Program-made: the position numbers and the translations under genes
Shown here: positions 8,294-45,525 of the stretch, in pieces
Layout: each line of letters begins with the position of its first letter
Numbering within the stretch: the stretch's first letter is position 1
The notes under the pieces: model-generated
Told to the model about the DNA's origin: nothing
What the model saw: the letters and a program-made list of their open reading frames with translations, nothing else
Database searches by the model: none
Source of the DNA: a virus
Reading direction: 5' to 3' (one strand)
Length of the DNA stretch: 61,091 nucleotides
Virus record (IMG/VR): IMGVR_UViG_3300015360_000046
Coordinates: 1 to 61,091 of that record

Positions 8294-8971
8294 ATGACCA
8301 AATCAAAGGAGACACCTAATATGAATCGACACTTTTTGAAGTGTACTTATTGTGAACGGCCAATGTCAGTGAATGTTAGTGACGCATCTGAACTTAAGAT
8401 CATCTTAGCTCAAGCATGTCCGTTGTGTGGTGAAAAAGCACTTAAGTATATGGGGCGTGTTCAACAGACTAACCTTGTTAGGACGGGCGTTAAAGCCGCG
8501 TGTGATCTTCGATGCACCAATGCAGTCGGTCCTAAATGTGATTGCATGTGTTCTCATCTCAATCATGGTACTCATCGTTTGGTTACGTTTGATAAGGTTG
8601 TCGGTCGGCTGGAAGTGGTTGAAAAAGATCTCCTTAATAATAACGAGAGTTATCTCGCTCGTATTAAGCGCATGGCTGACGCGAAAAATCGTATTAAGGT
8701 GAAAGTTATTACATTCTTGACATATAGATATCGTGCTGCGATTGATGCTAAAAACAATACAAATCATGGATATATAGCTGACAATACATTGTACTACGAA
8801 TACCATGATTATCGTAATTTCTTGCAGAAGATTGACAAGACTGAAGATCTTTTAAGCATTCAGCGCAAGGTTACACTGTTTGCCAAGATGATTCCTCAAC
8901 TTGGCTCAACACTTGATTATCTTGAAGCATTGAGTGCCGCAAAGGAAGCGAAAGAAGCGGTTGCTGCTTGA
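8294..8971 (+). CDS. Zinc-cluster protein of unknown function, 225 aa
   Basis: Two CxxC pairs (CTYC, CPLC) form a predicted zinc ribbon at about residues 17-45. A second Cys/His cluster, CDLRCTNAVGPKCDCMCSHLN then HGTHRLV, follows at about 68-97; I have seen this second pattern in uncharacterised phage proteins. The remainder is helical with an Ala/Glu-rich end. There are two in-frame starts. The ATG at 8294 lies five bases after the -10 box and would be leaderless, while Met10 at 8321 has a strong AAAGGAGA site inside the first codons. Either or both may be used. The stop overlaps the TTG start of the next gene. Confidence 0.7.
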   Translation: MTKSKETPNMNRHFLKCTYCERPMSVNVSDASELKIILAQACPLCGEKALKYMGRVQQTNLVRTGVKAACDLRCTNAVGPKCDCMCSHLNHGTHRLVTFDKVVGRLEVVEKDLLNNNESYLARIKRMADAKNRIKVKVITFLTYRYRAAIDAKNNTNHGYIADNTLYYEYHDYRNFLQKIDKTEDLLSIQRKVTLFAKMIPQLGSTLDYLEALSAAKEAKEAVAA

Positions 8972-9942
8972 ACAAAATTGTAGAAATTAAATTCGGTAGC
9001 TATTTATATGGGACAAACACCCCGAATAGCGATCTAGACTTTAAGGGTATCTACTTGCCTACAGCGCGAGAGATTTGCCTTGAAAAGGTCGCTAGGAATG
9101 TCAGCACGTCTCGTCCAAAACGCGAGTATGAGAAGAACACAAAGGATGATATAGATTCTGAGGTTTTTAGTCTCAAGGAGTATCTACGTCTTCTTTGTGA
9201 TGGTCAGACCGTCGCCTTAGATATGTTATTTTCACCAGATTCCTTTCAAATCTTTAAGGGTGACGAGTACCATTTGTTTCAAACGATCTATAAGAATAAG
9301 GATCGATTAATCTCTAAAGGTATCCTAAGCTTCATTGGGTATGCACGCAAGCAAGCCTCGAAGTACGGAATTAAAGGTTCGCGTGTTCGGGCTGTTAAAG
9401 AGATCATTGATTTCTTGACATTGCATGAGAGCACTGCGTTAATTAGCGAGTTAGATGATAAGATTGCTATTTCAGGACTCTTGTCAAATGAATTTATTAA
9501 GTACGTGGTTGACGTTGACAATAATGGCACAAATATTATCTACTTCGAAGTATGCGGCCGTAAATTTCAGCAGACAAATAATGTGGCGTATATACTTGGG
9601 GTTTTAACTAAGATTTATAACGGGTATGGACAACGAGCACGTCAGGCTGAAGAAAATGATGGTATTGATTGGAAGGCACTTTCTCATGCTGTTCGAGTTA
9701 ATTATGAAGGACAAGAATTACTACGAACAGGCTTTATTAAATTCCCGTGCACAAATAAACAATTGCTTTTAGACATAAAGAACGGTATAATTCCTTACAA
9801 GGAAGTTGAAACGGTTATTGAACAGGGGTTGATAGATTTAGAAGCGGCCCAAGCAAATTCAATACTTCGTGATGAACCTGATTTAAAGTGGCGAGATGAT
9901 TTTGTATACGATGTTTATTCAAGCATAGTTAAAGGAAAATAA
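8968..9942 (+). CDS. RlaP-type nucleotidyltransferase (DNA polymerase beta superfamily)
   Basis: The nucleotidyltransferase signature is at the N-terminus: FGSYLYGTNTPNSDLDFKGI, with G10-S11 and the D22-x-D24 metal pair, followed by IYLPTAREICL. This matches the family described as an RNA-repair-associated polymerase beta fold (RlaP, COG3541-like). The family is predicted to add nucleotides to RNA ends. Here the gene lies directly upstream of two tRNA genes, and the phage also carries an RNA ligase and an HD-kinase protein, so tRNA end repair is a sensible inference. Translation must start at TTG 8968, overlapping the previous stop (TTGA). The length of 324 aa is full. Confidence 0.8.
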   Translation: MNKIVEIKFGSYLYGTNTPNSDLDFKGIYLPTAREICLEKVARNVSTSRPKREYEKNTKDDIDSEVFSLKEYLRLLCDGQTVALDMLFSPDSFQIFKGDEYHLFQTIYKNKDRLISKGILSFIGYARKQASKYGIKGSRVRAVKEIIDFLTLHESTALISELDDKIAISGLLSNEFIKYVVDVDNNGTNIIYFEVCGRKFQQTNNVAYILGVLTKIYNGYGQRARQAEENDGIDWKALSHAVRVNYEGQELLRTGFIKFPCTNKQLLLDIKNGIIPYKEVETVIEQGLIDLEAAQANSILRDEPDLKWRDDFVYDVYSSIVKGK

Positions 9943-12322: not shown

Positions 12323-13234
12323 ATGTTTATAATTGTTGACGGGGCTGATAAGACGGGGAAATCGACGTTATGTAGCGCTATTGTTGAAGAGTTTGGTTCT
12401 AAATATTTTCATTTTGGTAAACCTAAAAAGTATCCTGCAACAGAGTATGCAGAGTATGCTTTGTCAATGAATGAGAACATGGTGTTAGATAGATTCTATC
12501 TCGGCGAGCTTGTGTATGGCCCGTTGTTTCGTGGCAAGGCTGGACTTACACCTCTTGAGTTTGCTACCATTGAACGCATCTTGCGTCTGAAACAAGCCAT
12601 TTTTGTTCAAACAACAACCAATGCAACACTCGCCAACAAGCGCCTGTTGGCTAGCGTACAAGACGAGATGGTTAATAAAGAACAGAATGTTAAGGCTGTT
12701 CAAGCATTTAAGGGTTTGTTTGGAAAATCAAAAGTGTCCCATATCATTCAGTATGATGGCTCTACTCGTGAGAATCTTGCTGTGGTTTTAAGTCAGCTTG
12801 AATCTCTGCAAAACGGCGTTGAACGGAATCAAGCTGAGATTAAGAACGTGTGCACTGGGATCGGCACGCCCGTTGGCCAGAAGATCGTTTTCGTGGGCGA
12901 AGCTGTCAACCATAATGTTACATGGATGAATCTTCCGTTTGACAAGGGCTTTTCTTCTCAATTCTTGCTCGATTCCTTTCAAGCAGCACGAGTGCCTGAG
13001 GAACAGATCTATCTCTGTAATGCAGATAAAATTACTTCTAAAGAAGTTGAATTCTTATCACGTGAGAAAACGACATTCGTCTCACTTGGCAAGAAGGCAG
13101 ATGAAAAGCTTAACTTCTTAGATGTTCCACATTATGCTTTGGCTCATCCGCAATATGTTAAGCGGTTCTTGTGGAATAAAAAAGATGAATATGTTACTGA
13201 GTTGAAACTGATTGTTAAGGAGGCGTCAAAATGA
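12323..13234 (+). CDS. Thymidylate/nucleotide kinase-like protein fused to a UDG-like domain, 303 aa
   Basis: Residues 1-160 are a P-loop nucleotide kinase of the dTMP kinase type: GADKTGKS (7-14) and a LDRFYLGELVYGP segment resembling the DR(Y/F) substrate motif. From about residue 185 a second domain reads KIVFVGEAVN, then LYLCNAD-like and FVSLGKKADEKL and HPQYVKRFLW. This resembles a uracil-DNA glycosylase-fold domain without obvious catalytic residues. The kinase would supply dTDP or another dNDP. CGGAGG precedes the ATG. The stop overlaps the next start (ATGA), linking it to the thymidylate synthase-like gene. The DNA polymerase also carries a UDG-like domain. Confidence 0.75.
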   Translation: MFIIVDGADKTGKSTLCSAIVEEFGSKYFHFGKPKKYPATEYAEYALSMNENMVLDRFYLGELVYGPLFRGKAGLTPLEFATIERILRLKQAIFVQTTTNATLANKRLLASVQDEMVNKEQNVKAVQAFKGLFGKSKVSHIIQYDGSTRENLAVVLSQLESLQNGVERNQAEIKNVCTGIGTPVGQKIVFVGEAVNHNVTWMNLPFDKGFSSQFLLDSFQAARVPEEQIYLCNADKITSKEVEFLSREKTTFVSLGKKADEKLNFLDVPHYALAHPQYVKRFLWNKKDEYVTELKLIVKEASK

Positions 13235-13998
13235 ACCCTCTTTATTATACCTTAGACAGAACGTATAGCGATATATCTAGCGCTTACCTCGGAACGTTAG
13301 AGGATGTGTATCTGAATCCAGATTATCGAACAGCTCCACGTGGTTTGCCTATCCAGGAAAAGATCGATTATATGTTTCATATTACTAACCCAACTAGTGA
13401 TCCAATTGTTACAAAGGATCTTGAGCGCAATGTGATTATCGCTGATTATACAGCCAAAGAGGTTGCTCTATATGATTCAGGAACTAATCGAGTAGAAGAC
13501 TTTGAAAAGGCCAGCAAATTCTGGCGCCAGATCGCGAATGCAGATGGTACAATCAACTCAGCTTACGGATTCCTAATTTGGTGTAATAAATCCCTTGGAA
13601 ATGGAACGATGACACCTTGGGATTGGGCGAAGCAGTCTTTGATCTCGGATAAAGATACTCGTCAAGCAATTCTACGTTTTTCCCTGCCTGAGCATTCAGT
13701 ATTTGGTGTAAAGGATTTTCCGTGCACTCTGTTTGGAAATTTCCTTATTAGGGAAAACAAATTGCACCTCACGATTGTCATGCGCAGCAATGATCTTTGG
13801 TTAGGGTTAACATACGATTTACCATGGTTCGTTGGGTTAATTGATCAAATGGTTGACGAGCTTAAGGTAACGTATCCAGATCTTCAAAAAGGATCTTATA
13901 CACATGTAGCGCATTCTGCACATATTTATGATCGCGATGTGACAAAGATTGAGAAGGCGTTAGGTTATTTTGTACTGGGAGATTCACATGGACGATAG
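13231..13998 (+). CDS. Thymidylate synthase / pyrimidine hydroxymethylase-like enzyme, 255 aa
   Basis: The nucleophile loop DFPCT (C165), the phosphate-binding RSND (R185-D188) and the H231-x-Y233 pair of the thymidylate synthase fold are present. At the position that is Asn in dUMP-specific enzymes (GLPFN in E. coli) this protein has Asp (GLTYD, D196). In T4 dCMP hydroxymethylase, and in known Asn-to-Asp mutants, that Asp favours dCMP. The gene may therefore make a modified dCMP instead of dTMP. Neighbours are a nucleotide kinase and dUTPase, fitting a deoxynucleotide operon. GGAGG lies just before the ATG. It could equally be a short-form thymidylate synthase. Confidence 0.75.
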   Translation: MNPLYYTLDRTYSDISSAYLGTLEDVYLNPDYRTAPRGLPIQEKIDYMFHITNPTSDPIVTKDLERNVIIADYTAKEVALYDSGTNRVEDFEKASKFWRQIANADGTINSAYGFLIWCNKSLGNGTMTPWDWAKQSLISDKDTRQAILRFSLPEHSVFGVKDFPCTLFGNFLIRENKLHLTIVMRSNDLWLGLTYDLPWFVGLIDQMVDELKVTYPDLQKGSYTHVAHSAHIYDRDVTKIEKALGYFVLGDSHGR

Positions 13999-16903: not shown

Positions 16904-18094
16904 ATGAGAATACTTTATATCTTGTTTGCATTAACATATTTCACACAGGGTGTTGGATCCCTTGCGTCCCAACCACTTTACTATTACTTGCGTGAAACAC
17001 TTGGTATTTCTGTTGCTACAATTATGTGGCTTGGGAGCATTACCAGTTTACCGTGGTTGATTAAGCCTTTATATGGATTCTTAAGTGACTCATTTACTTT
17101 ATTTGGATACAGGCGTAAGTCATATATTATCTTAAGCGCTATTTTAAGTAGTGCAGCAATGCTTGCTTTGGGCCTGTCACCATTTTGGTCAATTCCAGTG
17201 CTTGTAACTCTGTTGATCCTTGATTCAATGGGCGGAGCGATTAAGGACGTTGCTATTGACGGGGTGATGGTTGAGGAAGGCAAACGATTAGGTAATACAG
17301 GAACCTTTCAAAGTGTTCAATGGGGCGCGTTGTACGTTGCTCAAATTTTAACTGGTATTGGTGGCGGATATCTTGCAGAACATTATGATTACAAGATTAG
17401 CTATCTTATTATTGCAGCGTTTCCAATTCTGATCGGATATTTTGCATTAATATATACTGAACCAAAAGTTGAAAGCGTACGTCCAAAAATAGAGGTCAAG
17501 AAATGGCTTGCAGCGCTATCTCGAAAAGATTTTCTCCTATCAGGAGCTTTCTTATTTTTCTTATGGTTTAGTCCATCCTTTGGAACACCACTCATGGACA
17601 TTATGCGAACACAATTGCATATGAGCAAGATTTGGATTGGATGGCTTGGAACGATTGGAGCAGTTTGTAGTTTGCTTGGGTCTGTTGTTTATTTTCGATA
17701 CGCGAAAGAGCTTAATCTTAAAAAATGGCTTATTTGGAGCACTATAATAACTACGATAACTACTATAGCATATCTCTATGTAGATAAGAATGTCTTGTTA
17801 GTTTATACAATCATAGGTGGAATAAGTAGTGCCTTTATTCATCTATTGCTGCTTGATTTCATGGCTAGGACATGTCCTGAAGGCACAGAGGCGACCACCT
17901 TTGCACTTCTTTGTAGTTTGGTGAACTTTGCTACCTTTTGCAGCAATGGGTCTGGGGCTTTCCTGTTTGACAAAATTGGATATCATGGGCTAGTTATTGT
18001 CTCAAGTGTTACTACATTGCTCTGTTTAGGTTTCATCCCTTGGCTTAAATTGACACCTGAAAAGGGTTTACAAACAGTTAAAAACCTGGTATAA
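16904..18094 (+). CDS. BT1/MFS-type membrane transporter, about 397 aa
   Basis: The protein is strongly hydrophobic with about twelve membrane segments. Near the N-terminus it carries the folate-biopterin transporter signature: QPLYYYLRETLGIS, SLPWLIKPLYGFLSD and LFGYRRKSY, then KDVAIDGVMVEEGKR and GTFQSVQW. These blocks match the BT1 branch of the major facilitator superfamily, which includes cyanobacterial folate carriers. A phage-encoded carrier of this type is very unusual. The cargo cannot be read; folates, pteridines or a nicotinamide-related compound are options given the NAD genes next door. ATG 16904 is the best start but has no strong ribosome site. The stop codon lies within the -10 box of the next promoter. 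Confidence 0.8.
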   Translation: MRILYILFALTYFTQGVGSLASQPLYYYLRETLGISVATIMWLGSITSLPWLIKPLYGFLSDSFTLFGYRRKSYIILSAILSSAAMLALGLSPFWSIPVLVTLLILDSMGGAIKDVAIDGVMVEEGKRLGNTGTFQSVQWGALYVAQILTGIGGGYLAEHYDYKISYLIIAAFPILIGYFALIYTEPKVESVRPKIEVKKWLAALSRKDFLLSGAFLFFLWFSPSFGTPLMDIMRTQLHMSKIWIGWLGTIGAVCSLLGSVVYFRYAKELNLKKWLIWSTIITTITTIAYLYVDKNVLLVYTIIGGISSAFIHLLLLDFMARTCPEGTEATTFALLCSLVNFATFCSNGSGAFLFDKIGYHGLVIVSSVTTLLCLGFIPWLKLTPEKGLQTVKNLV

Positions 18095-18095
18095 T
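18067..18095 (+). promoter_or_regulatory. Sigma-70-type promoter, leaderless geometry
   Basis: TTTACA (18067-18072), a 17-base spacer ending TGG, and TATAAT (18090-18095). The box contains the TAA stop of the transporter gene, and the prs-like ATG is at 18102, six bases on. Confidence 0.8.
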
Positions 18096-18101
18096 ATAGA
18101 T

Positions 18102-18839
18102 ATGATTAAACTCAATGGACGTATAGTTACACCCACTATTTTTCCTGATAAAACTTCCCAAATTTGGAAGTTACAAGATGAATTGTTTATTGGTGGACCG
18201 CAACGTATTACATGGGAGTTTGAGAATGAGGCAGAATTGCTTCACGTTGCGCAGTTGAAAGACTTAATTGACGCAACTTGGGAGTTCCCAATTACTATTT
18301 TAGACATGCCGTATCTACCATATGCTCGCCAAGATAAAGAAATTTCAAATACAACCGCATTTGCGTTGTATTCTTTTGCTAAGTTGCTTAATGCTTTAGA
18401 GTTCGATATTGTGGAAGTGTACGATCCACATAATTTGCGTATTTCAACTGAGTTAATTAATAATCTAAAAGCTATTGCCCCAGATCCTGATAGCTTGGCC
18501 AAACTATTAGCTTCTGAGATAATTTACCCAGATTTCGGCGCAGCAGTTCGTTATAAAACATCCTTTAACAGCATTATTTGTAATAAGAATCGTGATCCTT
18601 TAACTGGTGAAATTGCCAGGCTAAATATTACCGGACAGATTGAATCTAAATCGTATCTTATTGTAGATGATTTATGTGATGGAGGACGAACGTTCATCGA
18701 GGTAGCGAAGAAGCTTTATGAAGCAGGAGCTACAGAAGTCCATTTGTATGTGTCTCATGGAATTTTCTCAAAAGGGTTGCAAGTCTTGCGCGATGTTGGG
18801 ATAAAGAGGATATTTACTTATAAAGGCGAAGTGCTATGA
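18102..18839 (+). CDS. Ribose-phosphate pyrophosphokinase-like protein, 245 aa
   Basis: The PRPP signature VDDLCDGGRT (188-197) and the ATP-site PYLPYARQDK (70-79, PYFGYARQDR in Prs) identify the Prs family. At 245 aa it is shorter than host Prs (about 310 aa). Prs makes PRPP from ribose-5-phosphate and ATP. In the phage NARP1 pathway a Prs-like enzyme (Adps) instead pyrophosphorylates ADP-ribose, and its partner is NAMPT-like. That the next gene is NAMPT-like makes both readings possible. The ATG is leaderless by geometry; the stop overlaps the next ATG (ATGA). Confidence 0.85.
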   Translation: MIKLNGRIVTPTIFPDKTSQIWKLQDELFIGGPQRITWEFENEAELLHVAQLKDLIDATWEFPITILDMPYLPYARQDKEISNTTAFALYSFAKLLNALEFDIVEVYDPHNLRISTELINNLKAIAPDPDSLAKLLASEIIYPDFGAAVRYKTSFNSIICNKNRDPLTGEIARLNITGQIESKSYLIVDDLCDGGRTFIEVAKKLYEAGATEVHLYVSHGIFSKGLQVLRDVGIKRIFTYKGEVL

Positions 18840-20302
18840 TTCTACCGATGTTGTATAGTGATTTTTATAAAGTTGACCACAGACGCCAGTATCCGGATGG
18901 TACTGAATTTGTTTATTCTAATTTGACCGCTCGTGGTAGTCGTATTCCTGGGATTGCTGCCACAGTCGTATTTGGTCTTCAGGCATTCTGTATGGATTAC
19001 TTAATTCGACGTTTCAATGATGGTTTTTTTAAACGTCCTAAAGCTGAAGTGCTAAAACAGTATCAACGCCGCATGGATACTTCCTTAGGGGCTGGGGTTA
19101 TCACGACTGAGCATATTGCTGCACTTCATGATCTTGGCTATCTCCCGATTCGTATAAAAGCATTGCCTGAAGGAACTGTTGTTCCTCTTCGTGTGCCTAT
19201 GCTTACGATTGTGAACACATTGCCTCAATTCTATTGGATCACAAACTTCCTTGAAACAATCCTAAGCAATGCAGTTTGGCACCCAATGACTTCTGCTACT
19301 ATTGCCCATCAATATCGTATTATGTTAGATAAGTATGCTACTGAAACGTCTGATATCCCAGAATTCGTCCAATGGCAAGGTCATGACTTTTCGATGCGTG
19401 GGCAATCAAGCTTTGAGGCGTCGCTTGCTTCTGGTGCCGCTCATCTGTTAAGTTTCACAGGGACAGATACAATCCCAGCTATTGATTGGCTTGAACATTT
19501 TTACTTTGCTGATGCTGAGAAAGAGTTGATTGGCGGGTCGGTCCCAGCCACTGAACATTCTGTCATGTGCTTGGGAGGTAAAGATACAGAAGCTGAGACA
19601 TATCGTCGTCTAATCACAGAGGTTTATCCTGCTGGCATTGTTTCTATCGTGTCTGATACCTGGGATTACTTTGAGGTTCTTAATACCACGATCCGTGGAT
19701 TGAAAGATGTTATTATGGCCCGAGAAGGGAAGGTTGTGATTCGCCCTGATTCTGGCAATCCGACGAAGATCATTTGTGGTGATCTTAACGCTCCGGAAGG
19801 TTCTTTGGAACGTATGGGCACTATTGAAATCTTATGGGATATCTTTGGTGGGACAGTTAACTCCAAAGGATTTAAGCAGCTCGACTCGCACATTGGTGCG
19901 ATCTACGGAGATAGCATTACTCTTGATCGTTGCCAGGCCATTTGTAATGGCTTAGCTGCTAAAGGCTTTGCATCGACCAACATGGTTTATGGGATAGGAT
20001 CCTATACATATCAATACACAACTCGTGATACATTTGGGTTCGCAATCAAAGCAACATATGGTATAATCAATGGGAAATCAGTCGAATTATTTAAACAACC
20101 TAAAACCGACAATGGAGTTAAAAATAGCGCAAAAGGTCTTCTCCGGGTAAACGCGGACTTGACACTTTCTGAGTCTGTTACTGCTGTTGAAGAGCGCGAA
20201 GGATTGCTTGAGACTGTGTTTTTGGATGGCAAGATGATTAAAACATACACATTACAGGAAATTCGTGATCGTTTGTCTAGGACACCACTATTTATAAAAT
20301 AG
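18836..20302 (+). CDS. nadV: Nicotinamide phosphoribosyltransferase-like enzyme, 488 aa
   Basis: Full length compared with human NAMPT (491 aa). Active-site blocks are recognisable: HDFSMRGQ (R188), SFTGTDT (D211), SVPATEHS (H241, the phosphorylated His) and IRPDSGNP (R303, D305). It joins nicotinamide to PRPP to give NMN, or in the NARP1 variant (Namat) to ADP-ribose pyrophosphate to give NAD+ directly. No NMN adenylyltransferase is visible in this window, which leans slightly towards the NARP1-type reading. The gene is co-transcribed with the Prs-like gene. The expected role is restoring NAD+ depleted by host defences such as Thoeris or other NADases. Confidence 0.9.
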   Translation: MILPMLYSDFYKVDHRRQYPDGTEFVYSNLTARGSRIPGIAATVVFGLQAFCMDYLIRRFNDGFFKRPKAEVLKQYQRRMDTSLGAGVITTEHIAALHDLGYLPIRIKALPEGTVVPLRVPMLTIVNTLPQFYWITNFLETILSNAVWHPMTSATIAHQYRIMLDKYATETSDIPEFVQWQGHDFSMRGQSSFEASLASGAAHLLSFTGTDTIPAIDWLEHFYFADAEKELIGGSVPATEHSVMCLGGKDTEAETYRRLITEVYPAGIVSIVSDTWDYFEVLNTTIRGLKDVIMAREGKVVIRPDSGNPTKIICGDLNAPEGSLERMGTIEILWDIFGGTVNSKGFKQLDSHIGAIYGDSITLDRCQAICNGLAAKGFASTNMVYGIGSYTYQYTTRDTFGFAIKATYGIINGKSVELFKQPKTDNGVKNSAKGLLRVNADLTLSESVTAVEEREGLLETVFLDGKMIKTYTLQEIRDRLSRTPLFIK

Positions 20303-20305
20303 ATA

Positions 20306-20476
20306 ATGAAACCAAATTCTATAGTTAATCATTCTCTTAAGAAGTCGTATCAGAGTAAAGAAGCAGCTGAAAAAATGGTTGCTTACTTATCTACGATTAA
20401 ATCAGTGTATCTTAAAGTATATAAGTGTTATTGTAATCTATGGCACTTAAGCAGCAAGGGGAAAACAAATGATTGA
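20306..20476 (+). CDS. Small WHLS-type phage protein, 56 aa
   Basis: The frame fills the gap between nadV and the helicase and overlaps the latter by eight bases. The ending YKCYCNLWHLSSK resembles the C-terminal pattern YxCxxCxxWHLT of small conserved phage proteins of about 60 aa, preceded by a helix (KEAAEKMVAYLST). Two Cys and one His could bind zinc. No clear ribosome site, so it is probably coupled to nadV translation. Confidence 0.6.
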   Translation: MKPNSIVNHSLKKSYQSKEAAEKMVAYLSTIKSVYLKVYKCYCNLWHLSSKGKTND

Positions 20477-21860
20477 CCAAGCTTTAGAGAAGAAGTTTCT
20501 AGCTCGTATTGTAAGAGATGCTGATGCAGCATTGATAGCTAGTCAACGGAAGATAACTGAAGAAGTGTTTCAGTGGGCAACCTCTGCGAAACTTTACAGC
20601 ATTGCTGTGTGGTATTCTCAGAACTATGGAACATGCTTATCTACTAATGAGCTTGACAGTCTACTTAAAACATCTAGTAAGCTTTCACCTGAGAGTCAAC
20701 AATCAATTTTCGTCTTATTTAATGAGCTTCAATCTGATCCACTAGATACTGATATCAACTTTTTATACGATGAGATGCTTCGATATCATAAGCAGAATTT
20801 GCTTGAGAAGGCATTGCGGCGTTCTGGAGAGCAATTCTCAGAAAAGAAAATTGATGAATCAATTGCTGATCTTAAGAAAGCTTTAAGTAAGATCGATTCT
20901 AAGTTCCGTACTGAGGTTATTCGAAGTGGGCAGTTGGATGAGTTTGCAGCTGAGATTGAGTGGGAATACGAGGATCGGAAACTTAACCCGTTAAAGTATG
21001 AAGGTCTTAAGATGGGATTCGCTGTAATGGATGAGGTTACTGGTGGATTAGTATCGTCAAGTGTTTCTCTTATTATGGCACCGCCTAAGGGCTTTAAATC
21101 AGCTTTGGCGATGACAATTTGTTACAATGCTGCGAAACGTGGTATCTATTCATATTATCATGCAAATGAAGGTACGTACAAACTATTTTATGGTAGGTTC
21201 GCTGCCATGGAACTTTCTATTCCGTATAAGCATATTAAAGATAACAAGATGACAGCTATGGAAGAATCTCGGTGGAAACAATGGATTCAGAGTGTGAAGG
21301 ATGGTAAGCATCAGATTTTGAAGTACATATACTTTGATGAAGTTCCTCCCGCAGTGAGTACTCCGGAAATTGTTAACGAACGATTGAAGAAGCTTAAAGA
21401 AGAGGGGAAAGAAGTCAAATTAGTTATCATAGATCACTTTGGTAGAATGACAACAAGTACTAAAGAAGCACTCCAAGATTGGCAAATGAAGGGTGTCATT
21501 GCTCAAGCGATTTGTAGCTTAGCTCTCGAGCATCGTGTTCCATTTATCTTACTTACCCATGTTAAGGCTAGTTCGGCTAAAGAGGGACTTGATAAAGAGA
21601 ATAAGGATTTTGATGCATATGATATTGAACGTTCTGGTCAACCATTGAAGGACGTAGATTATGTATTCTCATGGAAGATTGAGAATCAAGAGGAGTTTGA
21701 ACGGAATAGTCATAAAGGGTTTGCACGGTTGGCGTTAGTCTTATCGAGACATTCGGAGACGGGCGTGGCAACATTACAGATCAACGGACCATTTATGCAA
21801 ATTCAGGAGCTCCAATTAGGAGGTACGCAAGTCCAGACTCCTGTAACAACAATTATATGA
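20469..21860 (+). CDS. DnaB-like replicative DNA helicase, 463 aa
   Basis: An N-terminal helical domain (about 1-150) precedes a RecA-fold ATPase. LKMGFAVMDEVTGGL is the usual entry; the Walker A-like loop reads APPKGFKSAL (204-213), the Walker B LVIIDHFGRM, and a sensor-like PFILLTHVKASS follows. The Walker A departs from GxxxxGK(S/T), having A-P-P-K-G-F-K-S, but keeps the GxKS core. It should unwind DNA at the phage fork with the split primase (22326 and 40440) and polymerase. CAAGGGGAAAAC supplies a weak ribosome site; the stop overlaps the next ATG. Confidence 0.85.
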   Translation: MIDQALEKKFLARIVRDADAALIASQRKITEEVFQWATSAKLYSIAVWYSQNYGTCLSTNELDSLLKTSSKLSPESQQSIFVLFNELQSDPLDTDINFLYDEMLRYHKQNLLEKALRRSGEQFSEKKIDESIADLKKALSKIDSKFRTEVIRSGQLDEFAAEIEWEYEDRKLNPLKYEGLKMGFAVMDEVTGGLVSSSVSLIMAPPKGFKSALAMTICYNAAKRGIYSYYHANEGTYKLFYGRFAAMELSIPYKHIKDNKMTAMEESRWKQWIQSVKDGKHQILKYIYFDEVPPAVSTPEIVNERLKKLKEEGKEVKLVIIDHFGRMTTSTKEALQDWQMKGVIAQAICSLALEHRVPFILLTHVKASSAKEGLDKENKDFDAYDIERSGQPLKDVDYVFSWKIENQEEFERNSHKGFARLALVLSRHSETGVATLQINGPFMQIQELQLGGTQVQTPVTTII

Positions 21861-22342
21861 AAAATATTGATGCAATAATAGAGATTAGTGCTGGAACTAG
21901 GAATAAGTATGAATGGGATTCTAAAGAAGGGCGATTTCGGTTTAATCGTACACTTTCAACTTCTGTAAAATATCCAGTAAACTATGGATTTTTTGATAAT
22001 ACGTTAGCTGCCGATGGAGATCCAGCAGATTGTATTATTCCTTCTGTTGAACCTATTGAACAAGGGTGTATTGTGTTGGTAAGACCTATTGGAGTTTTAA
22101 AAATGATTGATGGCGGTGTTGAAGATTTTAAAATCTTATGCGTTCCTACTACTGATTTTCATTGGAATCATGTTTTAAAAATATCTCAAATGCCACCGCA
22201 TTTATTAAAAGAAATTGAACATTTCTTTCAGATTTACAAAGATTTAGAAAAGAAGAAGGTTGTAATAAAAGGTTGGGAAGGACGTAAAAAAGCTTTAGCC
22301 TATTTAAAGAAAGCTCTTAAGAATTATGAAAAAATCAATTAG
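21857..22342 (+). CDS. ppa: Inorganic pyrophosphatase, family I, 161 aa
   Basis: IEISAGTRNKYEWD at the N-terminus, YPVNYGFFDNTLAADGDPAD with D53, D55 and D58 of the D-x-D-P-x-D signature, and a CVPTTDFHW block match soluble family I enzymes. It hydrolyses PPi to phosphate. Phage copies are rare. PPi is made by the polymerase, by PRPP-dependent NMN synthesis and by dUTPase, so the enzyme would pull all three forward. The start overlaps the helicase stop by four bases and the stop overlaps the primase domain gene by 17. Confidence 0.92.
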   Translation: MKNIDAIIEISAGTRNKYEWDSKEGRFRFNRTLSTSVKYPVNYGFFDNTLAADGDPADCIIPSVEPIEQGCIVLVRPIGVLKMIDGGVEDFKILCVPTTDFHWNHVLKISQMPPHLLKEIEHFFQIYKDLEKKKVVIKGWEGRKKALAYLKKALKNYEKIN

Positions 22343-24188: not shown

Positions 24189-25196
24189 ATGACAGATGTT
24201 AAAGAGTTGAAATCATTTCTAGATAAACTAAGCAAGACGCATGAGACTACAATTGCTCGAATTAAGGATATGGATGATCGTCCTACTATTGAGGTTATTC
24301 CATCTGGGAGTTACTCAATCGATGACGCCCTAGGAGCTGGCGGATTCCCTAGAAGTCGTGTCATTGAAATCTACGGCCCTGAATCGGGTGGTAAAACCAC
24401 GCTTACGCTACTAGCGGCTGCATCATGTCAAAAGACTGGGGGAACTGTGGCTTTCATTGACGTTGAAAACTCCTTGTCGTTAGATTGGGCTGCGCGTCTT
24501 GGGGTAGATGTAGATAGTCTCATATTCACTCAACCAGATGGCGGGGAACAGGCCCTTCGTATAGTCAGAGATATGGTCGAATCTAATTTATTTGACATGA
24601 TTATTGTAGACTCTGTAGCTGCTCTAGTCCCTCAACAAGAAATTGACGGAGAAATTGGAGACCAAACGATGGCGTTACAGGCGCGCATGCTTGGACCAGC
24701 AATTCGTTTACTTGTCAAATCAGCCGCGAAGACAAAAACTGTGTTGATTTTCATCAACCAACTGCGTGAAACCATGGCAATGTATGGGCCAAAAGAAGTT
24801 ACTCCAGGTGGTAAAGCCTTGAAATTCTATTCAAGTGTGCGTTTGGCTGTAAGCAAGGTCAGTGGTTCAGAGATTAAAGCTAAGAAGGGCGATGGTGAAG
24901 ACGCAGCATCTGGGGAAATTCTTGGACATACTGTTAAGGTTAAAGTAGTTAAGAATAAGATTGGACGTCCTATGTGTGAAGCAACATTTGAATTGCGCTT
25001 CCTTAGCGGAATTGACAGATTTAAGGAATTGGTTGATATCGGATTAGCGCGTGAAGTTATTAGTCAAGCTGGAGCAACATTTAGCTTTGGGGCGCTTAAA
25101 GCTGTAGGTCGTGATAAGTTTGAAACAGAACTTCGACCAAATGAAGTCCTTCAGAAAGAAATTTGGACTGCAGTATTGGCTCTGAAAAAGATCTAA
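24189..25196 (+). CDS. recA: RecA/UvsX-type recombinase, 335 aa
   Basis: Walker A GPESGGKT (63-70), FIDVENSLS, the Walker B strand MIIVDSVAAL, the L2-adjacent INQLRE...PGGKALKFYSS and the GEILGHTVKVKVVKNK block are those of bacterial RecA, and the length is near 350 aa. It forms filaments on ssDNA for strand exchange and recombination-dependent replication. Start 24189 follows GAGGAGA by seven bases. The stop TAA shares its last A with the macro-domain ATG. Confidence 0.95.
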   Translation: MTDVKELKSFLDKLSKTHETTIARIKDMDDRPTIEVIPSGSYSIDDALGAGGFPRSRVIEIYGPESGGKTTLTLLAAASCQKTGGTVAFIDVENSLSLDWAARLGVDVDSLIFTQPDGGEQALRIVRDMVESNLFDMIIVDSVAALVPQQEIDGEIGDQTMALQARMLGPAIRLLVKSAAKTKTVLIFINQLRETMAMYGPKEVTPGGKALKFYSSVRLAVSKVSGSEIKAKKGDGEDAASGEILGHTVKVKVVKNKIGRPMCEATFELRFLSGIDRFKELVDIGLAREVISQAGATFSFGALKAVGRDKFETELRPNEVLQKEIWTAVLALKKI

Positions 25197-25675
25197 TGCC
25201 ACTCCTGTATAAGACTGGTTCACTTTTCGACGCACCTAAGGATTCGGTCTTGGTGCATGCATGTAATGCGCAAGGAGTCTGGGGTTCTGGAATTGCAAAG
25301 GAATTCAAACTACGTTTCCCTAATTCTTATGAACTTTATCATCATGTATGTCTTGATGGGGATGCAGCAGGTGCTGGTATTATTTTACCAAAAGAGAGTG
25401 AATACATGGTTGGCTGTTTACTGACATCACGCAATTATGCTTTGAAACGAGATTCAGTTGAAGAGATTTTAAAGAACACTCGTTCAGCCCTGACACATAT
25501 GCTTGAAATGGCCACTGACGTAAGAGAGATCCATAGCTGTAAGTTTAACGCCGGATTGTTTGCTGTACCTTGGGAAGAAACTGAAAAAGTTTTACTCGAT
25601 GTGGTAAATAAAACAGGGTATAATAAAGACTGGACAATTTGGACTTTACCTGATATAAAGACTAAGGAGATTTAA
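25196..25675 (+). CDS. Macro-domain protein (ADP-ribose-1''-phosphate phosphatase-like), 159 aa
   Basis: The strand-loop VLVHACNAQGVWGSGIA (19-34) with FPNSYELYHH, and GCLLTSRNY later, match the Poa1p-like macro-domain group. The group binds ADP-ribose and removes the phosphate of ADP-ribose-1''-phosphate, a by-product of tRNA 2'-phosphate removal. In this genome it could serve either the RNA-repair set or NAD/ADP-ribose recycling beside the Prs- and NAMPT-like enzymes. The start is TAATG-coupled to recA. Confidence 0.85.
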   Translation: MPLLYKTGSLFDAPKDSVLVHACNAQGVWGSGIAKEFKLRFPNSYELYHHVCLDGDAAGAGIILPKESEYMVGCLLTSRNYALKRDSVEEILKNTRSALTHMLEMATDVREIHSCKFNAGLFAVPWEETEKVLLDVVNKTGYNKDWTIWTLPDIKTKEI

Positions 25676-34599: not shown

Positions 34600-34645
34600 A
34601 CAATTACATTATCAACAGCATAAAACTAGGTTAATATGGATTTAA
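34580..34645 (+). CDS. Possible 21-aa mini-ORF coupled to the polymerase
   Basis: ATG 34580 has GAAGGA four bases upstream and the frame (MSQKTTKQLHYQQHKTRLIWI) ends ten bases inside the polymerase gene, whose own start lacks a good ribosome site. The mini-ORF may exist to deliver ribosomes to the polymerase start. No protein family. Confidence 0.45.
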   Translation: MSQKTTKQLHYQQHKTRLIWI

Positions 34646-37600
34646 ATAATAATTCATGCGTAAAATGTCCTTTAAGTGAACTTCGAACCTGTGTCTTGAA
34701 CGGGACGGGAGATAAACAATCAAAGATTGTCTTTATTATGGATTCGCCATCCAGAGAAGATGATATGCATAAACTTGCCTTTTCTGGCCTCTCTGCACGC
34801 AAATTAGAGAGCGTTCTAGCTCGCCTAGGTCTTCATAGTAGTCAGGTTTACATGACGTATGCAACACGTTGTCGTGCTAACCTAAGAACCATCGAAGGAG
34901 TGCGACCAGCTAACTTTGACGAGATTCAAGCATGTTCGCAATATCTCTATGATGAGTTAACAGAAATTAAGCCACATGTCCTTGTACCTATGGGTACAGA
35001 AGCAATGATGGCTGTGTTTAATATCAAGAAACCAAAGGTTGGTGAACTTAGGGGTATTGAAGCTTGGTCGGAACGATTTAATTGCAAGATTATTCCGACG
35101 TATGGTACAGGAGCGATTTTACGCAACCCAAACCTTGAAGAAGTGATGTTGCAAGATATTCGCAGAGCAGTTGAATCTTCTAAATATCCTGAAATGTCTG
35201 ATATTAAGAAAGGTAATTATTTGGTTATTAATAGTATGCAAACATTTGATGCTTTTTGCGATCGAATTGTTGAGCAGGAAGAGGTTTCAATCGATTTAGA
35301 AACAACAGGCTTTGATTGGCAATCAGATAAGATAATTTGTTGTTCATTCTCCTGGGCTGCAAATACTGGGGTGCTTCTCCCGATTACAAAATGGATCGGT
35401 GTCGAACACGAGAAGATTGTTGTTAAGCAGAAGAAAACTACTAAGAAGGGTGTTACTACTTATAAGCCTGTTGAGGAGATAGAGAAATGGATCGAGGATA
35501 CATATCATCCATGGTGGGCTGACAAACAAGAGTATGTAATGACACGATTCCGTAAAATCATGGAAAGTAATATTAAATTTGTCGCTCAGAATGGTAAGTT
35601 TGATTGGAAATTCTTATTACAAATGGGTTGGGATGTTAAACCGCTAGCATATGATACACTTCTAATGCACTATCTTCTGCGTGAAACCTCTAAAGGGGAA
35701 CATAACCTAGAAGATATGGCGCTCCAGTATCTGGGCAAAGGGCAACATAAGAAAGAGCTTGATGACTGGTTTAAGGCCAATAAGATGGGTGATGATGATA
35801 ATAAGAAGAATTATGCTCGGGTGCCTACGGACCTTCTCTTTTCCTACGGTGCAGCTGATGCTGATGTAACTCTCCAATTAAAGAATATTTTCATGCCTCG
35901 GCTTGAAGCAGAAGGTATGGCTGATCTATTTAAGCATCTTATCATGCCTCTAAACTTTACACTTACACAGATGGAATTTGAGGGATTTTTAATTGATAAA
36001 ACTGCGCTCCATTATGCTAAGAGTGTTTTAACACAGCAAATGATCGATACACAAACACATATCGGCAAGTTATTAATTGACGAAGGCGTTTTTAAACCTG
36101 TTGATTTTACTAATCAGGCAGAAGTTGACGTATTGATTGCTAACACACTTGAGATTCTAGATTCACCAAAGCAACTTTCTAAGTTATTGTTTGAAACACT
36201 CAAGCTTACTCCGATTAAACAAACAAAAACAGGATACTCTACAGATGAGGAGGTATTAAACATCTTGGGGAAGAAGTATCAGATTAAAGATCCTGTAACT
36301 GGCGAGTGGATCAATGACCCTAAAAGTGTTCCATCATCTATTGTGCAATTTCGTGGACAAGCGAAGCTGCTTCGAACTTATGTAGTAGGCATTGAGACAC
36401 GTTTAGATAAATATGGTCGGTTGCACACCAAGTTTTTACAGGAAGGTACAGAATCAGGACGTCTCTCTAGTCGTGATCCTAACTTTCAAAACTTTCCTCG
36501 TGATTCTAAATTGATTAAGAATATGTTCATTCCATCCCCTGGAAATGTCATTATTGAAGCTGATGAAGGACAGAATGAGTTCAGATGGTGGGGCATTTAT
36601 TCTAATGATCCACAGCTTGTTACAGATTTGAATGATGGGTTAGACATCCATAAACTTGTTGCTGCTTTGGCTGGCAAGGTCGATTATAAGAATGTAACAC
36701 CCAAGCAGCGTCAGGTTGCTAAATCAATCGTGTTCGGGCTCATGTTTAATATGGGTACAGAGAAGCTGTCTAAAGATCATGGTGTTACTGTTCAATATGC
36801 TGAAGAAATTAAGAACATCTTCTTTAGTCGGTATCCTGTTGCGAAGCAATGGAAGTATGACATCGTTAAGTTCGCTAAGAAAAATCTCTATGTTCAGAAC
36901 CGCTTCGGTCGTGTTCGCCACCTTCTAGCTATTAACCATCCAGACAATAAGATCGCGTACCAAGATGAACAGGGGGCGGTAAATTGTGTTGATGATCAAA
37001 CACAAATTTTAACAAAAGATGGATGGAAATCACACACAGAGGTTAACTCTGGAACCATTGTCGCAACTAAAAATCCAAATACTGGTGAATTGGAATGGCA
37101 ACCAATTCTTACTGTGAACAGATCAAATTATAATGGATTAATGTATGAATTTAATACCGCCAGCATATCTGCGGTAACAACTCCAAATCACAGGTGGTTA
37201 ATTGATAGAATATATAGCACAGGACGTAAACAAAAAAAAATAAAATTAAATATATTTAGAGAATCTCAAATAGTTTCGCCATCAGGGGCTGACAGAATTC
37301 ACTTAACAGTGGATTCATATAATGGAAATAATACTAGTTCATTTACTAATGATGAGATTGAATTGATTGGATGGTTAATTACAGAGGGGTCTTATTCTAA
37401 CTCATATGTTGATAAAAAATCTAAGCTTCTTAAAACACCAACAAGCTTAACAATTTGCAAATCATTGCGAGGAAATCCAGACAAATGTGCTCAAATTGAC
37501 AATTTATTTGCACGATTAAATTGTGGCACAGGTATTTATGCTGCACCACGAACACAAGAAAAATATTGGTCTACAAAAAATAAACCTCTAATATTAAAGA

Positions 37601-38331
37601 TCCGCAAATGGTTACCAACACGCTGTCTAACCCCTCAATTTTTATTACATTTATCAATAGAACAGTTGCATATTTTATATGAAACAATGTTATTAGGAGA
37701 TGGCTGCTGGGATAATGTTGCAAAATGTAGACGACAATTTGCTGTTAAAAATCAAACAGCCACAGATATGTTTTCGATGTTGTGTGTACTGATTGGGCAA
37801 AGCCACCACGTTTTTAAGAGAGATTTATCAATGTATCATCCTAGTTCTCCAAAATTACAAAATGTTCCTAAAATGTCATCTATTAATATCGGTGAGTTAA
37901 AAAAACGTACCAGAACACAATGTCTTTCTGAACGAACAATCCATAAGAATTGGCAAGGTATTGTTTGGTGTCCGACTGTTGAAAATCAAACGTGGATCGC
38001 CAGACGAAATGGAACAGTATATGTAACTGGTAACTCACCAATTCAAGGTGCTGCGTCAGACTATGTATCTAATGCAGCCAATCGAATTAGAGCTAAATTA
38101 TTAGAGAAAGGTTTGAAGGGTAAATTGCGTAACCTAATTCATGATGCTATTTACGTAGAGACTCCGCAATCCGAAATTAAAGAGACTTTAGAAATTATGG
38201 AAGAGGCAATGACGCGCAGGATATTAGGGATTCAAATTCCGTTAATTGCTGATTTTAAAATTGGTAAGCGTTGGGGTCGTATGCACAACATCAAGGTAGC
38301 TAACATTATTAAAAAACAGGTTACTTTATAG
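34636..38331 (+). CDS. Family A DNA polymerase with UDG-like N-domain and intein, 1231 aa precursor
   Basis: Residues 1-175 resemble family 4 uracil-DNA glycosylases, with C8, C11, C79 and C100 in iron-sulphur positions. The catalytic GEAPG and HP motifs are altered (MDSPSRED, TYGTGAILRNP), so it is probably inactive, as in SPO1-type polymerases. A 3'-5' exonuclease follows (DLETTG about 220, QNGKFDWKF, AADADVT). Polymerase motifs are ADEGQNEFRWW (A), RQVAKSIVFGLMFNMG (B, with Phe for the usual Tyr) and LIHDAIYVE (C). A 350-residue intein sits between N783 and S1134, just before SPIQGAASD. The spliced enzyme would be 881 aa. Confidence 0.95.
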   Translation: MDLNNNSCVKCPLSELRTCVLNGTGDKQSKIVFIMDSPSREDDMHKLAFSGLSARKLESVLARLGLHSSQVYMTYATRCRANLRTIEGVRPANFDEIQACSQYLYDELTEIKPHVLVPMGTEAMMAVFNIKKPKVGELRGIEAWSERFNCKIIPTYGTGAILRNPNLEEVMLQDIRRAVESSKYPEMSDIKKGNYLVINSMQTFDAFCDRIVEQEEVSIDLETTGFDWQSDKIICCSFSWAANTGVLLPITKWIGVEHEKIVVKQKKTTKKGVTTYKPVEEIEKWIEDTYHPWWADKQEYVMTRFRKIMESNIKFVAQNGKFDWKFLLQMGWDVKPLAYDTLLMHYLLRETSKGEHNLEDMALQYLGKGQHKKELDDWFKANKMGDDDNKKNYARVPTDLLFSYGAADADVTLQLKNIFMPRLEAEGMADLFKHLIMPLNFTLTQMEFEGFLIDKTALHYAKSVLTQQMIDTQTHIGKLLIDEGVFKPVDFTNQAEVDVLIANTLEILDSPKQLSKLLFETLKLTPIKQTKTGYSTDEEVLNILGKKYQIKDPVTGEWINDPKSVPSSIVQFRGQAKLLRTYVVGIETRLDKYGRLHTKFLQEGTESGRLSSRDPNFQNFPRDSKLIKNMFIPSPGNVIIEADEGQNEFRWWGIYSNDPQLVTDLNDGLDIHKLVAALAGKVDYKNVTPKQRQVAKSIVFGLMFNMGTEKLSKDHGVTVQYAEEIKNIFFSRYPVAKQWKYDIVKFAKKNLYVQNRFGRVRHLLAINHPDNKIAYQDEQGAVNCVDDQTQILTKDGWKSHTEVNSGTIVATKNPNTGELEWQPILTVNRSNYNGLMYEFNTASISAVTTPNHRWLIDRIYSTGRKQKKIKLNIFRESQIVSPSGADRIHLTVDSYNGNNTSSFTNDEIELIGWLITEGSYSNSYVDKKSKLLKTPTSLTICKSLRGNPDKCAQIDNLFARLNCGTGIYAAPRTQEKYWSTKNKPLILKIRKWLPTRCLTPQFLLHLSIEQLHILYETMLLGDGCWDNVAKCRRQFAVKNQTATDMFSMLCVLIGQSHHVFKRDLSMYHPSSPKLQNVPKMSSINIGELKKRTRTQCLSERTIHKNWQGIVWCPTVENQTWIARRNGTVYVTGNSPIQGAASDYVSNAANRIRAKLLEKGLKGKLRNLIHDAIYVETPQSEIKETLEIMEEAMTRRILGIQIPLIADFKIGKRWGRMHNIKVANIIKKQVTL
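36985..38034 (+). mobile_element. Intein with LAGLIDADG-type homing endonuclease in the polymerase
   Basis: The element runs from C784 (CVDDQTQILTKDGW, block A) to N1133 (VYVTGN). Block B is AVTTPNHRWL, block F VWCPTVENQTWIARRNG and block G GTVYVTGN, with Ser as the +1 residue. The penultimate residue is Gly in place of the usual His. Two dodecapeptide-like motifs, ELIGWLITEG (about 906-916) and YETMLLGDGCW (about 1014-1026), indicate a LAGLIDADG homing enzyme. The DNA is more A-rich than the flanking polymerase sequence, which suggests separate origin. Confidence 0.93.
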
Positions 38332-44167: not shown

Positions 44168-45445
44168 ATGGCTAGCGAAATGATGACAATCATGGAAAAG
44201 GTAAGCATGCGCCTGATCCAAAACAGCCCATTTTATGCAAACTTATTATCTCAGATGCGCAAGATTGAGTGTACAGGTGAACTTGCTAAACAAATTCCTA
44301 CAGAAGCAGTCGCCATTGAGAATGGCCGTATTAATTTTTATTTTAATCCTAAATTCCTTGAAACTTTGACGGTGGATGAAGCAGTTGCGGTTTTGACTCA
44401 CGAATGTAATCACGTTGTTAAAGGCCACTTAATTCGCATGCGGGATGAATATAAGGAAAATGCTCAACTTGCAAATATTGCTCAGGATATGAATGCCAAC
44501 CGTGACATTCCAAAACTTCCTAAAGAGGCGTGCACAGTTCAGACTATTACAGACCAGTTTGCTAAGCAAGGCATTAAGCTTAAACTGAAAGATGATGATA
44601 CGTCAGAAAATTATTATAAAGAACTGAATAAGCATTCTGCCAAAATAGAGATGCAACAAGGTGCAGATGGAAATCTTGATATGGTGTTAAAAGATTCGAA
44701 AGGGAAAGAGATTGGTCGCGTCTCGGTTAAATCAATCTGCAACAATAAAGATAAACAGTCCGATGCCAATGGTAAGGGTGATGTTCCAGAATTGGCTAAG
44801 GAAGTCATTCGACAAGCTGTGAAGGACGCTGTTGAGGCGACGCAAAAAGCCCGTGGAACAATTCCGTATGGCTTAGAAGAGGCTGTTGGTGATTGGTTGA
44901 AACCTCCAGTTATCTCATGGCGTACGCTTCTTAAGAAGTTCTTGGCTGCGTCTATTAAGTCGGGTTCCAAACGTAGTTGGAAGCGTCCTAATCGTCGCTT
45001 TGGCGAAGCACAGAAAGGTAAACTAAGTAATCGCTCGGTTTCGGTGACAATTGCGATTGATACAAGTGGTTCAGTTGGACCTGATGAGCTTAAGTCATTT
45101 GTTGCTGAGATGAAGGCCATTAAAGCATGTTATAAAGGCACAATGACTGTGATCGAGTGTGATGCAGAAATTCACAAGACATATAAATTGGATAAGTACA
45201 AACGTGTGCAAACAAACTTTAAGGGTCGTGGTGGTACAAGTTTTATTCCAGTGTTTAAATATATTAAAGACAAGAAGCTTAAAACTGATCTTTTGATCTT
45301 CTTTACAGATCTTGCTGGTGATCAAGAACAGTGTAAAAAACCACCATTTCCTGTATTATGGGTTGCAACTGTTTCAGCTCAGAAGATGCCATTTGGACAT
45401 GTTATATCATTAGTCGACAGCCCTGATAAACGAGACAAAAAATAA
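44168..45445 (+). CDS. VWA-like protein with metallopeptidase domain, 425 aa
   Basis: An N-terminal zinc peptidase-like domain has HECNH (78-82) in LTHECNHVVKGH, then DMNANRDIPKL. A charged middle (about 150-270) follows, and the C-terminus is a von Willebrand A domain with MIDAS DTSGS (298-302) and a FFTDLAGD strand. This is the DUF2201-like arrangement found next to MoxR ATPases. The pair probably acts as a metal-dependent chaperone or maturation system, here for virion or replication complexes. The next operon starts with MoxR. Confidence 0.88.
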   Translation: MASEMMTIMEKVSMRLIQNSPFYANLLSQMRKIECTGELAKQIPTEAVAIENGRINFYFNPKFLETLTVDEAVAVLTHECNHVVKGHLIRMRDEYKENAQLANIAQDMNANRDIPKLPKEACTVQTITDQFAKQGIKLKLKDDDTSENYYKELNKHSAKIEMQQGADGNLDMVLKDSKGKEIGRVSVKSICNNKDKQSDANGKGDVPELAKEVIRQAVKDAVEATQKARGTIPYGLEEAVGDWLKPPVISWRTLLKKFLAASIKSGSKRSWKRPNRRFGEAQKGKLSNRSVSVTIAIDTSGSVGPDELKSFVAEMKAIKACYKGTMTVIECDAEIHKTYKLDKYKRVQTNFKGRGGTSFIPVFKYIKDKKLKTDLLIFFTDLAGDQEQCKKPPFPVLWVATVSAQKMPFGHVISLVDSPDKRDKK

Positions 45446-45465
45446 ATACAAGGCCCCGGGAGGGG

Positions 45466-45494: not shown

Positions 45495-45525
45495 AAAGTG
45501 TGGCAAAATACCAAGGGAGAACAAA

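What the first reader, a model, noticed from the sequence alone, without database searches (positions are those of the whole stretch)
16904..20302. BT1-type transporter directly before a Prs/NAMPT NAD-restoring pair
Phages rebuild NAD+ by NARP1 (Adps plus Namat) or NARP2 (Nampt plus an adenylyltransferase). Here a Prs-like and a NAMPT-like gene form one operon, and no adenylyltransferase is visible in the window. The 12-TM BT1-type carrier ends within the -10 box of that operon's promoter. Phage-encoded carriers of this family are very unusual. It could import a precursor (nicotinamide, folate or other) that supports the salvage route.
Basis: partly seen in the sequence, partly recalled or inferred. 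Interest (0 to 1): 0.82.

Follow-up and report, generated by a model that had tools for sequence, protein, structure and literature searches.

The report
Phage NAD-repair pair beside conserved carrier
A bacterial virus carries a known two-gene kit that rebuilds NAD+ after the host destroys it, next to an intact nutrient-type membrane carrier that its relatives keep even without the kit, so the two are neighbours rather than a proven team.

Summary
The three genes are real and intact. Genes 2 and 3 are a NARP1 pair (Adps + Namat). The NAMPT-like protein scores 612 bits against the solved SPbetaL1 Namat and about 235 against human NAMPT. It keeps 18 of 20 NAD+-contact residues identically, plus the ADPR-PP "selectivity clamp" (GSYTYQYTTRD and Arg36). 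Namat makes NAD+ directly, so the missing adenylyltransferase is expected (a PF01467 search of the record found none).

Gene 1 is a 12-helix MFS carrier above the Pfam BT1 cut-off. It is a conserved gene of this phage group: I found it in 15 other viral records, with dN/dS about 0.05 in close pairs. Only 4 of the 16 carry Namat. In at least three relatives the carrier sits at the same locus without NARP1, and none of 40 other Namat-bearing viral records has the carrier. NARP1 also has its own promoter, at the carrier's stop codon. The link "carrier feeds NAD salvage" is therefore not supported. The pair looks like an exchangeable counter-defence cassette beside a phage-lineage carrier of unknown cargo. 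What is new is a phage subfamily of BT1-type carriers, with a coordinated Asp/Asp to Asn/Asn change in TM4 in one clade.

The parts
16904..18094 (+). BT1-type MFS carrier, 396 aa, 12 predicted membrane helices
   Evidence: PF03092 1.6e-47; TIGR00788 133 bits, below its 216.4 cut-off; AF2 pLDDT 84.6; conserved in 15 other viral records
17246..17260 (+). TM4 motif D115-V-A-I-D119 of the carrier (DVAIDG), aligned with AmpG DIVFDA; Asn/Asn in six relatives
18067..18095 (+). Sigma-70-type promoter TTTACA-N17-(TG)-TATAAT, overlapping the carrier stop codon; leaderless start of Adps predicted
   Evidence: the same arrangement in L084, L108 and L107
18102..18839 (+). Adps (ADP-ribose pyrophosphate synthetase, Prs homologue), 245 aa
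   Evidence: PHROG 619 1.4e-57; NCBIfam ribP_PPkin 1.2e-20, below its cut-off; clade with Adps of L084, L088, L096
18836..20302 (+). Namat (nicotinamide ADP-ribose transferase, NAMPT homologue), 488 aa
   Evidence: 9W5X/9W5W 612 bits versus human NAMPT about 235; clamp motif GSYTYQYTTRD, Arg36 = Arg40, 18 of 20 NAD+-contact residues identical
20469..21860 (+). DnaB-like helicase: right-hand boundary of the variable interval that holds NARP1 or other genes in relatives
   Evidence: PF03796 1.2e-19; synteny
21857..22342 (+). Inorganic pyrophosphatase; possible pull on the PPi-releasing Namat step; found in 3 of 4 NARP1-bearing relatives' loci and in none of the NARP1-less loci
   Evidence: PF00719 1.2e-52

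Best explanation
Two independent modules lie side by side. (1) Adps-Namat is a NARP1 counter-defence cassette with its own promoter and probably a leaderless transcript. When a host NADase splits NAD+ into ADP-ribose and nicotinamide, Adps (ATP + ADPR -> ADPR-PP) and Namat (ADPR-PP + nicotinamide -> NAD+ + PPi) rebuild NAD+ from both fragments, so no adenylyltransferase is needed. (2) The upstream gene is a phage-lineage inner-membrane MFS carrier of the BT1 family, kept by purifying selection whether or not NARP1 is present. It most likely moves a small organic nutrient (folate/pterin, or peptide/muropeptide, the known cargoes of its nearest families) for the infected cell's metabolism. Shown here: gene identities, the Namat signature, intact ORFs, the promoter match, conservation, and lack of consistent co-occurrence. 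Inferred: enzyme activity in this phage, direction of transport, cargo.
For: NARP1. Carrier family. Lineage-wide carrier independent of NARP1. Purifying selection (L087/L088 dN 0.075, dS 1.65; L089/L084 dN 0.19; dS saturated or nearly so). NARP1 patchy on the carrier tree (at least 3 changes forced, no clustering against shuffles). Separate promoter. Namat swapped while Adps stayed (Adps one clade; Namat in two supported clades).
Against: In all four records that have NARP1 it lies within about 4 kb of the carrier, although three of the genomes exceed 100 kb, so a weak functional tie is not excluded; shared ancestry of the locus explains it equally. The promoter is only a consensus match (14 found against 15 expected in the region, although this is the best one), so read-through from the carrier is possible. 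All records are linear contigs of unknown completeness. The cargo is unknown and no enzyme was assayed.
Confidence: 0.72

Rival explanations
1. One reading: the carrier imports nicotinamide or another NAD precursor that feeds Namat, so the three genes form one NAD-rebuilding system.
For: Adjacent and co-directional in the window, L084 and L096; about 2.2 kb away in L088. General knowledge: T4-like phages such as KVP40 carry pnuC with NAD-salvage genes, so a transporter plus NAD pair has precedent.
Against: Carrier kept without any Namat in 12 of 16 records, including three with the whole carrier-to-DnaB interval in view; absent from 40 other Namat-bearing viral records; separate promoter. NADases release nicotinamide and ADPR inside the cell in equal amounts, so import is not required.
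Confidence: 0.1
2. Folate or pterin import: the carrier supplies one-carbon cofactors for the phage's thymidylate-synthase / deoxypyrimidine-hydroxymethylase-like enzyme (13231-13998) and for nucleotide synthesis.
For: Best curated families are folate/biopterin: PF03092 1.6e-47, TIGR00788 1.2e-38 in all 9 members scanned. The window has a ThyA-like gene.
Against: ThyA-like gene in only 1 of 9 carrier-bearing records searched. TIGR00788 score is below its cut-off (133 against 216). Most BT1 relatives have no tested cargo.
Confidence: 0.25
3. Peptide or muropeptide carrier (AmpG-like), working with the phage peptidases that surround it in relatives.
For: AmpG among the top PDB fold matches; AmpG profile down to 1.8e-17 in 7 of 9 members; hhalign 93.6% with E. 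coli AmpG including the DxxxD motif. Peptide deformylase lies near the carrier in six distant members; M50, M17, M16, M42, ClpP or papain-like peptidases near several.
Against: PDB fold matches are generic MFS (NorA, MdfA, VMAT). AmpG score is far below its cut-off (62 against 350). Peptidases are not a constant partner in the window's own group.
Confidence: 0.2
4. The pair is an ordinary PRPP-NMN salvage route (true Prs + Nampt, with the host adenylyltransferase finishing NAD+).
For: SPbetaL1 Namat still makes NMN from PRPP in vitro (PMC12774641). Adps is only about 33% identical to SPbetaL1 Adps.
Against: All clamp residues that set ADPR-PP preference are present; the Prs-like protein is short (245 aa), below the ribose-phosphate diphosphokinase cut-offs, and paired with Namat across most of the phage set.
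Confidence: 0.07

Closest known systems
NARP1 (Adps + Namat) of Bacillus phage SPbetaL1; PDB 9W5X/9W5W; PMC12774641
   Same: Two-gene order Adps-Namat; Namat 57% identical with every clamp and catalytic contact residue identical or a conservative change (F392 to Tyr, A362 to Ser)
   Different: Adps only 33% identical; 4-nt gene overlap; predicted leaderless promoter at the stop codon of a carrier gene; pyrophosphatase gene after DnaB
NARP1 of phage DyoEdafos, with an inserted RyR-domain glycosidase (PMC13232231)
   Same: NARP1 operon that acts as a cassette with extra genes inserted (an HNH-type gene between Adps and Namat in L096)
   Different: No RyDEP gene identified here; the neighbour is a carrier
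BT1 / folate-biopterin transporter family (PF03092, TIGR00788)
   Same: Above the Pfam gathering score; MFS motif A region G-F-L-S-D-S...R-R-K
   Different: Below the TIGR00788 cut-off; encoded by tailed phages; TM4 Asp pair replaced by Asn pair in one clade
AmpG muropeptide:H+ symporter
   Same: MFS fold, TM4 DxxxD motif, profile match to E. coli AmpG
   Different: About 22% identity over 315 columns, shorter (396 against 491 aa), far below the family cut-off
Phage pnuC with NAD-salvage genes (e.g. KVP40; from general knowledge)
   Same: A phage carrying a transporter together with NAD genes
   Different: PnuC is a different transporter fold with known NR cargo; here the carrier does not consistently co-occur with the NAD genes

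Membership tests
NARP1 (Adps + Namat) | Namat closer to Namat than to Nampt | tested here: met
   612 bits to 9W5X against about 235 to human NAMPT
NARP1 (Adps + Namat) | SCH signature GSX(T/S)X(Q/N)X.TRD with aromatics at positions 3 and 7 | tested here: met
   GSYTYQYTTRD
NARP1 (Adps + Namat) | SCL stacking Arg/Lys/Tyr and catalytic contacts (D13, Y15, F189, D215, R306, D308) | tested here: met
   R36, D9, Y11, F185, D211, R303, D305
NARP1 (Adps + Namat) | Prs-like Adps gene next to Namat | tested here: met
   18102-18839, overlapping Namat by 4 nt
NARP1 (Adps + Namat) | Adps uses ADP-ribose; the pair makes NAD+ in vitro and in NADase hosts | not testable with these tools
   needs an enzyme assay
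NARP2 (Nampt + adenylyltransferase) | NMNAT/NadM-type adenylyltransferase gene | tested here: not met
   no PF01467 in the record; the control rang in 14 of 14 genomes; the record is a 61-kb fragment
BT1 family (PF03092) | Score above the Pfam gathering threshold | tested here: met
   162.7 bits against 22; all 9 records tested over the cut-off
Folate/biopterin MFS transporter (TIGR00788) | Score above the curated subfamily cut-off | tested here: not met
   133.3 against 216.4
AmpG muropeptide transporter (TIGR00901) | Score above the curated subfamily cut-off | tested here: not met
   62.3 against 350
BT1 / AmpG-type carriers | 12-TM MFS fold | tested here: met
   AF2 pLDDT 84.6; MFS matches at TM 0.7-0.8
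BT1 / AmpG-type carriers | Transport of folate, pterin or muropeptide | not testable with these tools
   needs a transport assay

The most novel reading that the evidence does not exclude
The carriers form a phage-specific transporter subfamily that is an important nutrient or metabolite gate for a group of large phages. In one clade (Asn/Asn in TM4) the carrier has lost proton coupling and works as a facilitator, possibly moving nucleotide-like metabolites in or out of the cell during host defence. NARP1 would then be one of several counter-defence cassettes that benefit from it.
Probability: 0.1. Interest if true: 0.8.

Novelty: new variant of a known kind. Interest (0 to 1): 0.45.

Why it matters
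The NAD pair is one more case of a widespread counter-defence and adds little by itself. It does show in-place replacement of Namat while its partner enzyme stays. A vitamin/muropeptide-type MFS carrier kept under strong purifying selection by at least two groups of uncultured tailed phages is unusual: phages rarely carry 12-TM secondary carriers, and this one does not track any single metabolic gene. Finding its cargo would show which external nutrient limits these infections. It also warns against reading phage gene adjacency as pathway membership.

Tried and rejected
Single-sequence scans for the carrier in viral contigs, genome contigs and phage records found nothing, and a three-member profile in genome contigs also found nothing. 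These are mostly peptide-pattern scans, so a distant bacterial source is not excluded. Plasmids gave only about 21-24% Cupriavidus MFS matches. PDB sequence search with the carrier profile gave nothing. Folate link through ThyA rejected as general. ZIP zinc-transporter link rejected as general (one record only). Adps in the NARP1-less relatives: none found. L112 and L118 (24% identity) were set aside as probable unrelated MFS. PHROG 2034 was not used as evidence because it matches any MFS (rings in 14 of 14 control genomes).

Full report
**Observation.** The window is a 61,091-base virus record. At 16904-18094 lies a 396-aa ORF with Pfam BT1 at 1.6e-47, followed by a 245-aa Prs-like ORF (18102-18839) and a 488-aa NAMPT-like ORF (18836-20302), all on the + strand. 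The last two overlap by ATGA. A strong sigma-70-type promoter, TTTACA-N17-TATAAT with TG upstream of the -10, ends at 18095, and the carrier's stop codon (18092-18094) lies inside the -10 box.

**The NAD pair is NARP1.** By sequence, the NAMPT-like protein's best solved relatives are 9W5X and 9W5W, SPbetaL1 Namat, at 612 bits; human NAMPT scores about 235. The structural paper (PMC12774641) defines a selectivity clamp for ADP-ribose pyrophosphate: motif GSX-phi-X-phi-X-phi-TRD, with aromatics at positions 3 and 7, plus a stacking Arg/Lys/Tyr in an N-terminal loop. The window protein has GSYTYQYTTRD and Arg36 at the Arg40 position. Of 20 NAD+-contacting residues, 18 are identical; A362 is Ser and F392 is Tyr. 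The Namat homologues collected from viral contigs all carry a G-S-...-T-R-D motif of this type. Namat joins nicotinamide to ADPR-PP to give NAD+ directly, so the absent adenylyltransferase is expected; a PF01467 search of the record was empty while all 14 controls rang. The Prs-like protein is the Adps: short, below the Prs cut-offs, PHROG 619. That it takes ADPR rather than ribose-5-phosphate is inferred, not tested.

**The carrier.** It belongs to BT1 in Pfam but falls below the curated cut-offs of the folate/biopterin (TIGR00788) and AmpG (TIGR00901) subfamilies. A nine-sequence AF2 model has pLDDT 84.6 and an MFS bundle. PDB fold matches are generic MFS, with AmpG at ranks 4 and 5. In BFVD the confident named matches are giant viruses and other eukaryotic viruses, none of them tailed phages, and tblastn over 50,697 phage records found none.

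**The carrier is a phage-lineage gene.** Profile scans of IMG/VR and record searches gave fifteen further viral records. Seven are close relatives with the same neighbourhood (L084, L088, L096/L111, L087, L100/L110, L089, L090). Eight are more distant (L091, L113-L117, L093, L094). The copies read in full are intact, except that L084 is cut by the contig end. Close pairs show dN/dS about 0.04-0.05, with dS near or beyond saturation.

**It does not track NARP1.** Namat occurs in four of the sixteen records: the window, L084, L088 and L096. In L087, L089 and L090 the carrier-to-DnaB interval is in view and holds other genes. Adps is absent from the NARP1-less records searched (that search had no internal positive). 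Among 40 further Namat-bearing viral records the carrier was found in none. On the carrier tree NARP1 presence needs at least three changes and is not clustered. L088 has the order Adps-Namat-...-carrier-DnaB. Each module is therefore found without the other.

**Cassette behaviour.** The four Adps proteins form one supported group (97/84). Their Namats fall in two separate supported groups: window + L096 (99/98), and L084 + L088 (100/100, next to SPbetaL1). So Namat was replaced at the locus while Adps stayed. In L096 an HNH-type gene sits between them. Promoter-like sites at the carrier's 3' end recur in L084, L096 and L100, in L100 in front of an unrelated gene. In the window, five sites combine an extended -10 with an ATG 5-6 nt downstream, which suggests leaderless transcripts. 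All this fits accessory genes with their own promoters placed between the carrier and DnaB.

**Cargo.** Neighbours differ between groups. In the window's group they are NARP1, a metallophosphoesterase whose gene overlaps the carrier start in L090, or a ZIP zinc transporter (L090 only). In the distant group they are peptide deformylase, ClpP-like, M50, M17, M16 and M42 peptidases and a LOG-type enzyme. A ThyA-like gene is in the window only, among nine records searched. No partner is constant, so the cargo cannot be read from context. Family membership favours folate/pterin or muropeptide/peptide; nicotinamide is not favoured. One structural lead is the TM4 pair D115/D119, aligned with AmpG's DIVFDA: it is Asp/Asp in the window, L090, L091, L093 and L094 but Asn/Asn in six relatives that form one clade. 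This suggests a coordinated change in coupling or substrate.

**A possible better partner of NARP1.** The inorganic pyrophosphatase at 21857-22342 occurs in the loci of three of the four NARP1-bearing records (window, L084, L096) and in none of the NARP1-less ones. It could pull the PPi-releasing Namat step, but numbers are small and DNA synthesis is an equal explanation. A macrodomain gene (25163-25675) is also present in these three and in L089.

**Limits.** Records are linear contigs of unknown completeness. The scans use peptide patterns and can miss distant copies. The host is unknown. No biochemistry was done.

**Verdict.** The pair is a NARP1 counter-defence module, a new member of a known kind. 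The carrier is a phage-borne subfamily of BT1-type MFS carriers, notable in itself, whose tie to NAD is adjacency only.

Noticed in passing
8283, 15109, 18090, 57507, 61016 (+): Repeated extended -10 promoters (e.g. TGTACA-N17-TATAATATAGTATG) with an ATG 5-6 nt after the -10, suggesting a family of leaderless phage transcripts; 13 such promoter-like sites on the + strand, 0 on the -, 5.3 expected.
   Followed up: partly
carrier residues 115 and 119 (window 17246-17260) and homologues: Asp/Asp to Asn/Asn coordinated replacement in TM4 in one clade of the phage carriers.
   Followed up: partly
L090 11565-12302: Phage-encoded ZIP zinc transporter (PF02535, 2.5e-44) two genes after the BT1-type carrier; a second secondary carrier in one phage.
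   Followed up: partly
L091 and L113-L117, within a few kb of the carrier: Unusual density of peptidases and protein-processing genes (PDF, M50, M16, M17, M42, ClpP-like) plus LicD, IspD-like and glycosyltransferase genes.
   Followed up: partly
window 21857-22342: Inorganic pyrophosphatase that co-occurs with NARP1 in 3 of 4 loci and in none of the NARP1-less loci.
   Followed up: partly
window 25163-25675: Macrodomain protein (PF01661; DarG-like by NCBIfam, far below cut-off), possibly an ADP-ribose-handling enzyme.
   Followed up: no
window 13231-13998: ThyA-like protein with TYDLPW where thymidylate synthase has an Asn (N177, recalled), suggesting a dCMP-directed hydroxymethylase or methylase; only member of the group with it.
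   Followed up: partly
window 34636-38331: Family A DNA polymerase with an N-terminal uracil-DNA-glycosylase-like domain (PF03167) and an apparent intein-like insertion before the last polymerase block (intein by eye).
   Followed up: no
window 44168-46584: DUF2201 VWA-like metallopeptidase followed by an AAA ORF resembling MoxR (the latter by eye), a MoxR-VWA type pair.
   Followed up: no
window 8968-9942, 53074-54204, 56078-57277: RNA-repair set: RlaP-like nucleotidyltransferase, T4 Rnl1-type RNA ligase, HD + polynucleotide kinase fusion.
   Followed up: no
window 60010-60936: Patatin-like phospholipase (PF01734, 6.8e-23) in the phage.
   Followed up: no
L088 8222-9145: Mom-type DNA-modification protein (PF25680, 2.2e-40) between Namat and the carrier.
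   Followed up: no
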